Below, piece by piece: positions 51,597 to 55,365 of a stretch of DNA of 64,000 nt. Made by a program: the position numbers and the translations under genes. The notes under the pieces were generated by a model. The model saw only the letters and a list, made by a program, of their open reading frames with translations. It ran no database searches and was not told the origin of the DNA. The stretch is from NCBI GenBank assembly GCA_024742875.1, contig JANSXP010000034.1:1-64000 (forward strand), in the 5' to 3' direction. Position 1 is the stretch's first letter. Every line of letters starts with the position of its first letter. This DNA is from Planctomycetaceae bacterium (GTDB taxonomy: Bacteria; Planctomycetota; Planctomycetia; Planctomycetales; Planctomycetaceae).

Positions 51597-53408
51597 GTGA
51601 CTCCATTGTCAACAGTCGAAAAAGATCCCAATCAGGACCAAAGCCAGAACGCGGTTGAAGAAATCACGGGCGCAGAAATCCTCACCGAAATGCTCATTCG
51701 CATGGGCGCGGAGCACGTCTTCGCCTATCCGGGCGGTGCCAGCATGCCCCTGCACCAGGCCCTCCGCAAATACCGCGATCGCATTCGCACCATCCTGCCA
51801 CGCCACGAACAGGGCGGCAGCTTTGCCGCACAGGGTGTGGCGCGAACCACAGGCAAGCCGGGTGTCTGCATGGCCACCAGCGGTCCGGGAGCCACCAATC
51901 TGATCACCGGAATCGCGGATGCCAAGCTCGACAGCGTCCCCATGATTGCCATCACAGGTCAGGTGCCTCAGGCGGCCATCGGTACTGACGCGTTCCAGGA
52001 AACGCCCATGGTCGATGTGTGTCGTGCGATCACCAAACATCACTACATGATCACGGACATCAAGGATGTGGCTCGCATCGCCAAAGAAGCGTTCTACATC
52101 GCCAGCACGGGCCGACCAGGCCCCGTCCTGATTGACTTCCCCAAAGACGTGCAGGTTGCCAAACTGCCCGTCAAAGACGTCGACTTCGACCCCAACTTCG
52201 AGCTGCCCGGCTATCGTCCGGAAATCCGCAAAGCCGCGCCGGAGCAGATCAGCCAGGTCGTGGCCGCCATCCGACGCTCCAAACGTCCCGTCATGTACGT
52301 GGGCGGTGGCTGCATCCTCAGCGAGTCCACGGAAGAGTTGCGGGAGTTCGCCCTCAAGACCGGCATTCCTGTCACCATGACCATCATGGGACTCGGCTCC
52401 TTCCCCGGTGATCACGAGCAGTCACTGCACTTCCTTGGGATGCACGGCACAGCCTACGCCAACTACGCCGTGGAAGAGGCCGACCTGCTGCTGGCCTTTG
52501 GCGTTCGCTTTGACGACCGCGTCACGGGCAAGCTGGAAGAATTCGCCAAGCACGGAAAGATCGTGCATGTGGATATCGACCCTTCCGAAATCCACAAGAA
52601 CAAAGAGGCCCATATCCCCATCAACGCGGACCTCAAAGAAGCGCTGATCGCCCTGAATGCCACGATCACAGACGACGATGTCCCCGACATCGCCGACTGG
52701 AAACAGAAGATCGCCGGCTGGAAAGAGAAACACCCGCTCACCTACCGCGATTCGGACACCGACATCCTCCAGCAGTGGGCCATCGAGGAACTCTACCGAC
52801 AAACCAAAGAACAGGACCCCTACATCACCGTCGGCGTCGGCCAGCACCAGATGTGGGCCGCCCAGTTCTACAAATTCAACAAACCTCGTCGCTGGCTCAG
52901 CAGCTCTGGCCTGGGAACCATGGGCTTTGGTCTGCCCGCCGCCATGGGCGTTCAGGCCGCTTACCCGGACTCGCTCGTCGTCAACATCGACGGTGACGGC
53001 TCATTCCAGATGAACATTCAGGAACTCGCCACCCTCTACTGCGAAGGTCTGCCCGTCAAAACCCTGCTGCTCAACAATCAGCACCTGGGAATGGTCACCC
53101 AATGGGAAGACCGCTTCATGCAGGGTCGCCGTGCTCACACCTACCTCGGCCCGGTCGACAAGCCCGAAGCCCTCGGCGACGGTGACGGCTCTCAGCCGGC
53201 CGAAACCTTCCCCAACTTCGTGCAAATTGCCGAAGCCTACGGTGTCAAAGCCCGTCAGGTCCGCAACAAAGCCGACTTCCCGGCCGCTCTGGAAGAAATG
53301 ATCAACCACGACGGCCCCTACCTGCTCGACGTCATCTGCGTCTACCAGGAACACGTCCTCCCCATGATCCCCAGCGGACACACCGTTCGCGACATGATCC
53401 TCGAATAG
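51597..53408 (+). CDS. ilvB: Acetolactate synthase, large subunit
   Basis: A 603-residue thiamine diphosphate enzyme, first common step of branched-chain amino acid synthesis. Visible are the N-terminal [18 protein letters not shown], catalytic Glu in [12 protein letters not shown], and the C-terminal cofactor motif [15 protein letters not shown] ... NNQHLGMV. The start is GTG at 51597 or TTG at 51606; AGGATAG lies directly before the GTG, so the TTG may be the real one. The regulatory small subunit (ilvN) does not follow: a repeat island begins right at the stop codon. Confidence 0.96.
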
Positions 53409-54309
53409 GCCGGGGGGCCCCGGCCGGGGCGGTGGCGTGGGGAAGTCGACTCGTTGTGGCACGCCGCTGCGCCGAGTCGCTCGCGTTGCTCGCTACGACG
53501 TTTGAGGTCGCACCGCGCGTGGGAGTGCAGCCCGGCCTAACCGGGCCTACGCGATGGCGTGGGCCGCTGCGGTTGCAGCGGGAGTCGATTCTGTGTGTCA
53601 GGTCTCTGTGCCGAGTCGCTCGCGTTGCTCCCTACGACGCCTGGGTTAGCACCGCGTGTGGGAGTGCAGGCTGAGCGAATTACGCCCGGGGCGGTGGCGA
53701 ATGTCGTTGCGTTCGCAGCTGGGAACGATTCCGCGTGGCAGCACCCGATGTGCGACAAGGCAAGACGCCACTCCGATGGTCCATGCAATCGTGGTGCCAG
53801 CCCTGATCGTCACGCCTCCCGGACGAAAACAGTCCGGCTGACCAAACGCCAACGAGCGGCTCACAATCCCACCGATACTCACTGCGCTCACCCCGGTCTG
53901 CGCGCCCGTGCGAAGCGCGGAGCGATGTGCGTCGTTCACAGCGAGCAACGCGAGCGACTCGGCGCAGCGATGAGCCACAATGAATGGACTCCAGCCCGCC
54001 ATTGCCCGCCGGGGCATCCCGGCCGAACAACGAGAGCGACTCGGCGCGACGATGAGCCACAACGAATGGACTCCAGCTGCGTTAGCAGCGTCCCACGCCA
54101 TCGCCCGCCGGGGCAACCCGGCAGAACATCGCCTGCCGGGGCATCACCGCCGAGCCAGGAGCGGGGCGATCTGTGTTGTCGTAGCGAACAACGCGAGCGA
54201 CTCGGCGCAGAGGCGTTCCACAAAGAATCGAACGACCCACGCCATCGCCCGCCGGGGCGTCCCGGCCGCCATCGCCCGCCGGGGCATCCCGGCCCGTCCC
54301 GGCCCGGGT
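53409..54309. repeat. Island of a structured, multi-copy repeat between convergent genes
   Basis: No credible gene lies here. Five copies share the core CAACGCGAGCGACTCGGCGC or close variants: reverse orientation near 53469-53500 and 53610-53639 (141 bp apart), forward orientation near 53941-53970, 54025-54060 and 54181-54210. After each core comes GAATCGACT/GAATGGACTCC, then CCACGCCATCGCC or similar, then a GC hairpin. Perfect hairpins GCCGGG-N4-CCCGGC occur at 54008-54023, 54107-54122, 54251-54266 and 54278-54293 with loops GCAT, GCAA, GCGT, GCAT. Left-hand copies have differing stems (GCCCGG/CCGGGC at 53530-53546; GCCCCGGCCGGGGC at 53417-53430). The island begins at the ilvB stop and ends at the hydrolase stop. 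Frames without stops here are by-products of the repeat. Confidence 0.85.
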
Positions 54310-55365
54310 TTATTGTTCGAGAGGCGTGGGTTCGTCGTTGCGAATGGGGGCAGGCGGTACGTTGGGATTGAAGCGGCCTGTTTTGAGGAAGTGGAGTGTT
54401 TTTTCGATGGCTCGTTCATCAGACATCAGGACCGTGTGGATTACGGGCAGGAGCACGAAGTCTGCAGCGCCGGGCAATCGCGTGCTGGCGACCAGCACGG
54501 TCATGTCGTTGTCCCCTTTGAGGATTGGGTTGTAACCTTTGGCTTTGCCGCGACCACCGGCCACGACTCCAAATTCGAAGGTTGGCACAGGTAGCTTGTC
54601 GATGAATTTCTGATCGTTGGTGGAGGCCAGTTGCTGACCGGCCGGTCCCAGCGCCAGCTTGAAAAGCGGGTTGCTTTTGAGCATATCGGCGAGCTTCGCT
54701 CCTTTGTTGGGCACACCCAGCATCACCGCGCGGCGGACGCGAGGGTCAGTGTGCTTGATGAGCCAGGCCCGCAGCACGAGGCCTCCCATCGAGTGGCAGG
54801 CAAAGTCAATATCCGTGATGCCCTCCAGCGACTGCAGGACACTTTGCAAATACTCGGCGGCGGCCTCAATGGAGATCTGCGTGCTGGGATAGTCAAAGCC
54901 CACGACCGTATAGCCCTGCTGCTGCAGCGTTTTTTTCATCGGCGCAAATGACTGGTGTGACCGACCAATGCCGTGCACCAGTACGACGGCCCTGCCGTTC
55001 ATGGGGGGCAGTCGGTGTTCCTGGCGAATGGCATCCAGAGCCACCTGGCACTCTTTCAGCGATCCGGAAAAGTGACGTTTCTGATCGGGGTCCAGCAGGC
55101 GACAGTGCCCATCAAACACGTTCCGCTGAATCCGCCATTCCTGGAAAAAGACAAGATCGCCCCAGAACTGTCGTCCGCCGAATGTCTGAATCCCGCCTGG
55201 CACTTTCGTTTCTCCGTGTTGCGGCGGCCGCGTGGAAGCAGCCCCCTGAGCCAGCAGAACGTCGCCCGTGAGGGCAGCGAAGACAACTGCCAACAGTACG
55301 TTCCGGCGCGTGTGAGCGGCAGGCTGCTGCCACCACGTCTGTACGCTGATCTTCCTGGTAAACAT
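54310..55365 (-). CDS. Exported alpha/beta-hydrolase (lipase/esterase-like)
   Basis: A 351-residue hydrolase. A basic N-terminus and hydrophobic segment (NVLLAVVFAALTGDVLLAQG, about 22-41) fit an export signal. The oxyanion region VVLVHGIGRSHQSF and the nucleophile elbow FACHSMGG (G/C-H-S-x-G) are clear; the Asp and His of the triad are likely in the DNDMTVLVAS and VIHTVLMSD segments. This branch includes triacylglycerol lipase- and PGAP1-like enzymes. It lies 59 bases downstream of the heme/HEAT dehydrogenase gene on the same strand. Confidence 0.82.
   Translation of the reverse strand: MFTRKISVQTWWQQPAAHTRRNVLLAVVFAALTGDVLLAQGAASTRPPQHGETKVPGGIQTFGGRQFWGDLVFFQEWRIQRNVFDGHCRLLDPDQKRHFSGSLKECQVALDAIRQEHRLPPMNGRAVVLVHGIGRSHQSFAPMKKTLQQQGYTVVGFDYPSTQISIEAAAEYLQSVLQSLEGITDIDFACHSMGGLVLRAWLIKHTDPRVRRAVMLGVPNKGAKLADMLKSNPLFKLALGPAGQQLASTNDQKFIDKLPVPTFEFGVVAGGRGKAKGYNPILKGDNDMTVLVASTRLPGAADFVLLPVIHTVLMSDERAIEKTLHFLKTGRFNPNVPPAPIRNDEPTPLEQ

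What the first reader, a model, noticed from the sequence alone, without database searches (positions are those of the whole stretch)
53409..54309. Island of an inverted, structured multi-copy repeat between two convergent genes
Five copies of one unit (core CAACGCGAGCGACTCGGCGC) occur in 0.9 kb; two face one way on the left and three the other way on the right, around a centre of about 300 bases with weak repeat similarity. Each unit ends in a GC hairpin. Across copies the stem is kept while the loop varies (GCAT, GCAA, GCGT), and in one left copy the stem sequence itself changed to GCCCGG/CCGGGC. A second hairpin GCTGC/GCAGC occurs in two units with unrelated loops (53566-53579 and 54076-54089). 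Kept pairing with changed sequence suggests selection on structure. The island starts exactly at the ilvB stop and ends at the hydrolase stop. It does not match an insertion sequence, CRISPR or REP family that I know.
Basis: partly seen in the sequence, partly recalled or inferred. Interest (0 to 1): 0.75.

Follow-up and report, generated by a model that had tools for sequence, protein, structure and literature searches.

The report
Stop-codon-anchored hairpin repeats in Fuerstiella
A group of marine bacteria carries a repeated DNA element that starts with a hairpin sitting directly behind the stop codons of many ordinary genes, and the hairpin has been preserved by matching base changes, which suggests it does a job at the ends of gene messages.

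Summary
The island at 53409-54309 is one of 57 clusters (151 units) of a dispersed repeat found in 46 fetched stretches of this genome, a Fuerstiella-like planctomycete. Each unit begins with a 16-nt GC hairpin plus GGGCGGTGGCGTGG (the head); a 75-125-nt body follows. Opposed arms have heads outward. Most array-end heads lie at a gene's 3' end, often directly at the stop codon.

The head is clear in six of seven congeners and marginal in one. The rest of the family shows only scattered near-matches (27 against 11 for the control). In a closed 8.9-Mb congener, 68 units follow the same rule. Its stem covariation is strong (0.376 against 0.114 shuffled; double changes at four of six pairs). Behind asnS the head is kept at 28-29 of 29 bases in three species whose third codon positions agree at only 55-65%.

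It works like a REP element, but lacks the GTAG tag, and no Y1 transposase was found in this genome. Best reading: a REP-like element kept as an RNA 3'-end hairpin (terminator or exonuclease block). Covariation and anchoring are shown; function is inferred.

The parts
51597..53408 (+). ilvB (acetolactate synthase large subunit) CDS, stop TAG 53406-53408; left neighbour of the island
Evidence: ORF; 82-84% identical best matches in 7 congeners; C-terminus ends DMILE* in the three congeners whose end was read.
53408..53425 (+). head hairpin of left unit 1, GGCCGGG-GGGC-CCCGGCC; its first base is the G of the TAG stop codon
   Evidence: fold; covariance-model hit 53409-53440, 22.6 bits
53409..53529 (+). 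left unit 1 (head plus body)
   Evidence: nhmmer 53417-53518, E 1.7e-19
53530..53546 (+). head hairpin of left unit 2 with a different stem: GCCCGG-CCTAA-CCGGGC
   Evidence: sequence; the covariance model gives only 12.0 bits nearby, at 53551-53562
53530..53669 (+). left unit 2
   Evidence: nhmmer 53551-53656, E 1.2e-13
53566..53579 (+). optional second hairpin GCTGC-GGTT-GCAGC
   Evidence: sequence; the same module with other loops in other units, by eye
53670..53914 (.). centre between the arms, no unit found
   Evidence: no nhmmer hit
53915..54023 (-). right unit 1; head 54023-53994
   Evidence: nhmmer 54018-53915, E 6.9e-17; head 40.3 bits
54026..54122 (-). right unit 2, shortened at its 3' end; head 54122-54093; contains the second hairpin 54076-54089
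   Evidence: nhmmer 54116-54026, model 3-77; head 45.9 bits
54127..54150 (-). possible degenerate head
   Evidence: covariance model 12.8 bits, E 0.02
54161..54266 (-). right unit 3; head 54266-54237
   Evidence: nhmmer 54261-54161, E 1.4e-22; head 52.1 bits
54267..54293 (-). head without body, directly in front of right unit 3
   Evidence: covariance model 37.8 bits
54294..54309 (-). partial head duplicates (ACCCGGGCCGGGACGG) between the stop codon and the last full head
   Evidence: sequence
54310..55365 (-). hydrolase CDS, stop TAA; right neighbour of the island
Evidence: ORF; 57-62% identical best matches in 7 congeners.

Best explanation
The island is a convergent array of a genus-specific, REP-like palindromic repeat. 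The core (head) is a GC hairpin with a conserved 14-nt tail. It sits mostly at gene 3' ends, very often directly against the stop codon, with the head towards the gene and the body pointing away. Inferred mechanism: the head is transcribed and folds as soon as the terminating ribosome clears the stop codon. It marks the 3' end of the mRNA, either by stopping RNA polymerase without a U-tract or by blocking 3'-5' exonucleases. Between convergent genes, two opposed arms would do this for both transcripts. Tandem copies arise by local duplication; the opposite arm probably arises by local inverted duplication or is homogenised with the first. Shown: dispersed family, stem covariation, orientation bias, stop-codon anchoring, and conservation at asnS. 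Inferred: transcription, termination or stabilisation, and the mode of spread.
For: Family: 151 units in 46 loci of the own genome. Covariance-model matches: own 143 and G004 135 (at most 150 candidates scored per genome), G003 35, G005 22, G001 16, G007 15, G002 9, G006 1.

Structure: 97 distinct heads from seven genomes score 0.131 against 0.042 +/- 0.007, reached by 0 of 500 shuffles; this rests mainly on one pair, GC 74 / CG 11 / AU 7. G004's 39 heads score 0.376 against 0.114 +/- 0.019, 0 of 500, at most 0.091 when slid, double changes at 4 of 6 pairs, 97.4% of cells paired.

Anchoring: own genome, 76 array-end units, 49 within 60 nt of a sense gene 3' end. Of 71 outermost heads, 48 have a sense gene end in reach; 17 of these 48 are in direct contact (offset -2 or -3). 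G004: 30 of 43 array-end units have a sense gene end; in 26 of the 30 the stop lies 4-11 nt before model position 1, and 15 of them abut.

Control: stop-adjacent stems are not general in this genome, 13 of 303 genes against 12.6 in shuffles; the 303 include the window's own array gene.

Selection: behind asnS the head is identical at 29, 28 and 28 of 29 bases while third codon positions agree at 64, 55 and 65% and the next 60 nt at 62, 63 and 45%.

Replacement of terminators: hairpin plus T-run in 3 of 57 array clusters against 10 of 47 background convergent gaps, p = 0.018; one of the 47 itself holds units.

Arms: bodies of opposite arms of one array are 0.85 identical, against 0.80 between arrays and 0.88 within an arm.
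Against: No expression data were available. Fifteen of 67 array-end units with a called neighbour face a gene's 5' end, and three both-arm arrays (L032, L037, L056) lie in co-directional or divergent settings, so heads-outward geometry is not set by gene direction alone. In G004, 13 of 43 array-end units have no called sense gene end. The strand test for RNA, G-U over A-C, is only 14 to 7 (p = 0.19). asnS lacks the element in five of eight species, so it is dispensable there. No U-tract follows the head. The 167-bp units of one G004 array carry an extra terminator-like hairpin, which would be redundant if the head terminated well. Conservation was measured at one gene only.
Confidence: 0.55

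Rival explanations
1. A purely selfish REP/REPIN-like miniature mobile element, moved by a Y1 transposase since lost or missing from this assembly. It is tolerated at gene ends, and the hairpin is kept because the transposase needs it as single-stranded DNA.
For: REPs are known to sit at 3' ends and between convergent ORFs, and their termini often supply TAG stop codons (PMC3733652 section 15). Heads-outward inverted pairs match the commonest REP dimer type reported there. Y1 matches exist in the other congeners: 7 of 8 genus genomes at E <= 0.1, 6 of 8 over the cut-off. Several contigs of this genome end inside arrays, so a transposase gene could be missing.
Against: No Y1 match in the own genome. 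Of 20 fetched Y1 loci (of 43 matches listed), none holds a unit by profile search; the covariance model gives one weak hit (L305, 16.3 bits) that does not read as a head. GTAG precedes 2 of 121 own heads. Tandem same-orientation arrays are common here (75 of 151 own, 25 of 68 G004 units) but rare in REPs. At asnS the head is conserved between distant species, which a dead selfish copy would not be.
Confidence: 0.27
2. A DNA-level feature: the opposed arms form cruciforms or bind a protein (supercoiling, nucleoid or replication function), and transcription is irrelevant.
For: Arms are 76-82% complementary over 49-96 nt. The G-U/A-C asymmetry is not significant. Some arrays lie beside gene 5' ends.
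Against: In the closed congener 2 of 40 sites with units have both orientations facing each other (706691, 5768000). Stop-codon adjacency and sense bias, 52 to 15 in the own genome (p = 6e-6), are not expected of a transcription-independent function.
Confidence: 0.1
3. Simple local tandem-repeat growth (slippage) with no function; the pattern reflects GC-rich low-complexity sequence or misassembly.
For: Tandem copies within an arm are more alike (0.88) than units of different arrays (0.80). Many contigs of the own assembly end in arrays.
Against: Dispersed copies share one head; the same rule holds in a single-contig congener; covariation at four pairs; single copies conserved at orthologous sites; 0 of 100 shuffles match.
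Confidence: 0.03
4. An element that inserts actively and precisely behind stop codons by a targeted mechanism (RNA-level or translation-linked targeting), unlike known REPs.
For: Direct or near-direct contact with the stop in two well-sampled species. TAG is over-represented at abutting heads: 22 of 31 (own and relatives pooled) against 76 of 303 own genes. Protein C-termini are unchanged between occupied and empty sites at asnS and ilvB.
Against: The TAG excess is not significant in G004, 13 of 27 against 19 of 57, p = 0.23. Selection, or supply of the stop by the element, could also give adjacency: in 12 of 48 own and 4 of 30 G004 cases the stop lies inside the unit. No insertion event was seen within a species.
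Confidence: 0.05

Closest known systems
GTAG-tagged REP elements / REPINs / BIMEs (PMC3733652, section 15 and passages; PMC3116915, passages)
   Same: Hairpin core of 20-40 bp, high copy, intergenic, close to gene 3' ends, between convergent ORFs, inverted pairs with the tagged ends outward, some termini supplying the TAG stop codon; members reported in Planctomycetes (abstract).
   Different: No GTAG/GTGG tag as a rule; no Y1/RAYT found in the genome, and 20 checked Y1 loci of relatives hold no unit; same-orientation arrays of units 69-167 bp long with a body are common; 14-nt conserved tail on the far side of the hairpin; hairpin often directly at the stop codon.
CGTC-tagged REP elements (PMC3733652, passages)
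   Same: Hairpin repeats without a dedicated transposase.
   Different: CGTC or TGTC before 2 of 121 own heads only; stem 6 rather than 8-9 bp; tail GGGCGGTGGCGTGG rather than CCA.
Intrinsic terminators, including U-tract-free hairpin clusters (PMC8355165, abstract and section 13)
   Same: GC hairpin or hairpins close behind the stop codon; that paper reports that a poly-U is not a necessary trait in all bacteria.
   Different: A dispersed homologous repeat with a conserved non-hairpin tail and body; termination not shown.

Membership tests
GTAG REP / REPIN | short palindromic hairpin core in many dispersed copies | tested here: met
   151 units in 46 loci; covariation
GTAG REP / REPIN | unpaired GTAG (or GTGG) tetranucleotide 0-2 nt 5' of the stem | tested here: not met
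   in the 7 nt up to the first stem base, 121 own heads: GTAG 2, GTGG 6; relatives GTAG 2 of 52; G004 GTAG 1-2 of 62, depending on register
GTAG REP / REPIN | RAYT (Y1 transposase) in the genome | tested here: not met
   PF01797: 0 matches in the own genome, control rings in 5 of 14; 0 again at E <= 0.1. The assembly is 98.1% complete with breaks in arrays, so a missed gene is possible
GTAG REP / REPIN | RAYT gene flanked by the element in some relative | tested here: not met
   20 fetched Y1 loci of 43 matches listed: no unit with the own or the G004 profile, one weak covariance hit that does not read as a head; 23 matches not looked at
GTAG REP / REPIN | location mainly at gene 3' ends and between convergent genes | tested here: met
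   52 of 67 array-end units with a called neighbour face a sense 3' end; G004 30 of 43 have a sense gene end
GTAG REP / REPIN | inverted pair (doublet) as the mobile unit | tested here: inconclusive
   14 of 44 clusters of full units have both arms in the own genome; 2 of 40 sites in G004
GTAG REP / REPIN | demonstrated excision or insertion | not testable with these tools
   only occupied and empty orthologous sites seen
CGTC REP | CGTC (TGTC/CCTC) tag and 8-9-bp stem | tested here: not met
   CGTC 1, TGTC 1, CCTC 0 of 121 own heads; 6-bp stem
Canonical intrinsic terminator | GC hairpin followed by a U-tract | tested here: not met
   3 of 57 array clusters against 10 of 47 background convergent gaps
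Known Rfam RNA families | match to a curated covariance model | tested here: not met
   0 matches at E <= 1 over 7 sources, 46,989 bases
CRISPR | short near-identical repeats with unique spacers, cas genes | not tested
   cas genes were not searched; the units are diverged and 111-156 nt long in the set, unlike CRISPR repeats

The most novel reading that the evidence does not exclude
A mobile element family that targets translation stop codons: it lands in one orientation directly behind the stop, leaves the protein unchanged, and hands the gene a ready-made RNA 3' end. It is thus a domesticated, portable transcript-end module that replaces ordinary terminators across a bacterial genus, moved by an enzyme other than a RAYT.
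Probability: 0.13. Interest if true: 0.85.

Novelty: new variant of a known kind. Interest (0 to 1): 0.6.

Why it matters
How planctomycetes end their transcripts is, as far as I know, little studied. Here is a dispersed element that sits directly at stop codons, whose hairpin is kept by compensatory change, and which is present in a closed congener genome. That makes a direct test possible: map RNA 3' ends at the 40 sites with units in that genome, with matched orthologous sites that lack the element. It would also help decide whether REP-like repeats are parasites or working 3'-end parts, an old question.

Tried and rejected
Rejected. (1) RAYT-borne REP family: no Y1 match in the genome and no unit in 20 fetched Y1 loci. 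The first check of those loci used patterns that would have missed G004-type heads, so it was repeated with the covariance model and both profiles. (2) Known RNA family: no Rfam match. (3) Element in viruses: 0 stretches in viral contigs for one exact head pattern. (4) A general terminator style of this genome: stop-adjacent stems are at shuffle level in 303 genes. (5) Structure of the whole unit: folding z-scores of six units not significant. (6) A second conserved stem between the 14-nt tail and the CGCCGAG motif: looked at by eye, not consistent, not pursued. (7) A strand test for RNA by wobble pairs: 14 to 7, not significant. (8) TAG preference: significant in the own genome (25 of 48 against 76 of 303, p = 2.6e-4) and at abutting heads, not in G004.

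Limits. Gene ends come from a home-made ORF and codon-score caller, not an annotation; the codon scores were trained on the own genome and reused for G004. The covariance search scored at most 150 candidates per genome, so 143 and 135 are lower bounds. For one search, 2 of 41 distinct G004 heads were left out (one weak, one with a shifted tail). A2 kept all 97 selected heads although some are out of register; most heads with 3-nt loops were left out by the selection rule. Related copies inflate covariation scores. Body-identity pairs are not independent. Hydrolase orthologue ends were not recovered. ilvB ends were read in 3 of 7 congeners. Non-planctomycete contigs (9 of 21 stretches) were treated as chance or coding sequence except as noted in passing.

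Full report
1. What is there. Between the ilvB stop (TAG, 53406-53408, +) and the hydrolase stop (TAA, 54312-54310, -) lie two repeat units on + and three on -, plus one head without body. In units of the own genome the body can take in an optional second hairpin (GCTGC...GCAGC) and other insertions. A 26-nt head pattern with 3 mismatches has 4 matches in the window and none in 100 shuffles.

2. How widespread. In the own genome (8.18 Mb, 168 contigs) the island has 168 blastn matches at E <= 0.001. A profile finds 151 units in 46 fetched stretches, forming 57 clusters. The genus is Fuerstiella, inferred from record titles of hits whose contig lengths equal those of handles G001, G002, G003 and G007 (G003's title says only uncultured Planctomycetaceae). 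G004, a single 8.92-Mb contig, is probably F. marisgermanici NH11 by size (inferred; the abstract of PMC5177795, read, gives almost 9 Mb). The head pattern with 3 mismatches is found in 7 of 8 genus genomes: own 127, others 14, 7, 9, 8, 0, 32, 19, with backward controls of 0-5. Outside the genus, 18 of 162 family genomes show 27 matches at 2 mismatches, against 11 in 8 genomes for the backward control: a small excess, mostly single places, no exact match, and not followed up. A two-unit blastn query matched only genus members, 5 of 58 genomes with the own one counted. A covariance model of the head gives at least 135 matches in G004 and one marginal match in G006. An exact head pattern: 12 of 21 stretches in genome contigs are from the genus; none in viral contigs.

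3. The rule of placement. Of 151 own units, 75 follow a unit of the same orientation within 250 nt and none follows one of opposite orientation, so opposed arms have heads outward. Of the 76 array-end units, 49 lie within 60 nt of a gene 3' end on the same strand, 3 more are sense but farther, 15 face a gene 5' end, and 9 have no called gene. In a second count, 48 of 71 outermost heads have a sense gene end in reach. Offsets peak at direct contact (17 of 48, 19 within one or two bases of it). In 12 of 48 the stop lies 16-47 nt inside the unit. Among the rest, several have a partial head (TAGCCGGG...) between the stop and the full head (offsets recounted). In G004, fetched independently: 68 units at 40 sites, 25 preceded by the same orientation, 0 by the opposite; 43 array-end units, 30 with a sense gene end, of which 15 abut directly, 11 lie a few bases away, and 4 use a TGA supplied by the unit at +37; 13 have none. 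Background genes show no such stems: 13 of 303 against 12.6 expected.

4. Structure is under selection. In 97 distinct heads from seven genomes the covariation score is 0.131 against 0.042 +/- 0.007 (0 of 500 shuffles; slid versions at most 0.065), but it rests mainly on pair 5 (GC 74, CG 11, AU 7); the counts of pairs with double changes (20 of 500 shuffles reach it) and of pair types (57 of 500) are less striking there. In G004 the evidence is much broader: 39 heads, 97.4% of cells paired against 82.4% shuffled, score 0.376 against 0.114 +/- 0.019, slid at most 0.091, and double changes at pairs 2, 3, 5 and 6; further pair types 9 against 4.4 (0 of 500), pairs with double changes 4 against 2.2 (8 of 500). 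Related copies inflate such scores, as the tool warns. The six units folded whole show no significant folding.

5. Age and conservation. Behind asnS the head stands directly after TAG in G001, G007 and G002. It is absent in G000, G003, G004, G005 and G006, whose proteins end at the same residues (HAEF*) (the gene name asnS is my reading of the protein, no family search was run). In the three carriers the 29-nt head is identical at 29, 28 and 28 positions, while third codon positions of the last 100 codons agree at 64, 55 and 65% and the following 60 nt at 62, 63 and 45%. Behind ilvB the element is present in G000 and absent in G003, G004 and G005, again with an unchanged protein end. Hence the site can be occupied or empty without touching the protein, and an occupied head can be kept for a long time.

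6. What it replaces. Hairpins with a T-run occur in 10 of 47 background convergent gaps but in 3 of 57 array clusters (p = 0.018). One of the 47 itself holds units and has no terminator by this test. By eye, empty ilvB sites in G004 and G005 show an ordinary hairpin with a T-rich tail downstream. Against this, one G004 array carries a terminator-like hairpin inside its 167-bp units.

7. How arrays grow. Bodies are 0.88 identical within an arm, 0.85 between opposite arms of the same array (14 arrays), and 0.80 between arrays. The two arms of an array therefore share local history, by inverted duplication or conversion.

8. Comparison. REP elements are the closest kind. They sit close to 3' ends and between convergent ORFs, and their GTAG termini often supply the TAG stop (PMC3733652, section 15 read, other passages). 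Tests of membership: hairpin core, met; placement, met; GTAG tag, not met; Y1 transposase in the genome, not met; Y1 genes of relatives flanked by the element, not met in 20 of 43 loci looked at. Y1 proteins of a class found mainly in Planctomycetes, Acidobacteria and Proteobacteria have atypical flanking structures with a CnGA foot (PMC6006769, passages); this was not tested separately. The element works like a REP but is not filed as a GTAG or CGTC REP. U-tract-free hairpin clusters as terminators have been proposed for many bacteria (PMC8355165, abstract and section 13).

9. Is it in print? The listings of nine searches of the held library showed no paper on this repeat. The F. marisgermanici genome paper has the words repeat and palindromic only in its reference list (find). 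Only the open-licence library was searched.

10. Verdict. Placement and covariation are shown. The RNA 3'-end function is the best reading at about 0.55; a purely selfish REP-like element is the main rival at about 0.27. Novelty: a new variant of a known kind.

Noticed in passing
L331:1345-1772 (G004): A 167-bp unit repeated 2.6 times directly behind a TAG stop; each full unit also carries a terminator-like hairpin AAGCCCGGCTT...AAGCCGGGCTT with a short T-rich tail.
   Followed up: partly
L198, L200, L201 (G004): Three places in the closed genome have the same roughly 90-codon ORF end followed by an identical head and downstream sequence (as far as shown), as if another mobile sequence carries the head with it.
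   Followed up: no
own genome G000, PF01797 searches: This is the only one of eight genus genomes without any Y1 transposase match at E <= 0.1, yet it is one of the two richest in the repeat.
   Followed up: partly
contig ends C6, C40, C41, C104, C105, C120, C141, C147, C166 of G000: Repeat units lie at or near these contig ends, so the repeat probably breaks the assembly and the copy number is underestimated.
   Followed up: no
L139:1445-1500 (Oscillospiraceae MAG contig): An exact head-like match next to a second GGCGGACAATGGCG motif in an unrelated bacterium; chance, contamination or convergence.
   Followed up: partly
L133, L140 (Phenylobacterium MAGs): GGAATAGGCCGGGATGCCCCGGCGGGCGATGGCG (one base pair of differences between the two contigs) in two related contigs, possibly coding sequence on the other strand.
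   Followed up: no
L382 about 1945-2557 and L383 about 1931-2389 (G004): Long single-orientation arrays (7 and 6 units, about 89-bp period), whereas most G004 sites hold a single unit.
   Followed up: partly
family genomes outside the genus, e.g. G014 (6 matches) and G105 (3): Near-matches to the head pattern slightly exceed the backward control (27 against 11); they may be GC-rich coding sequence or distant relatives.
   Followed up: no
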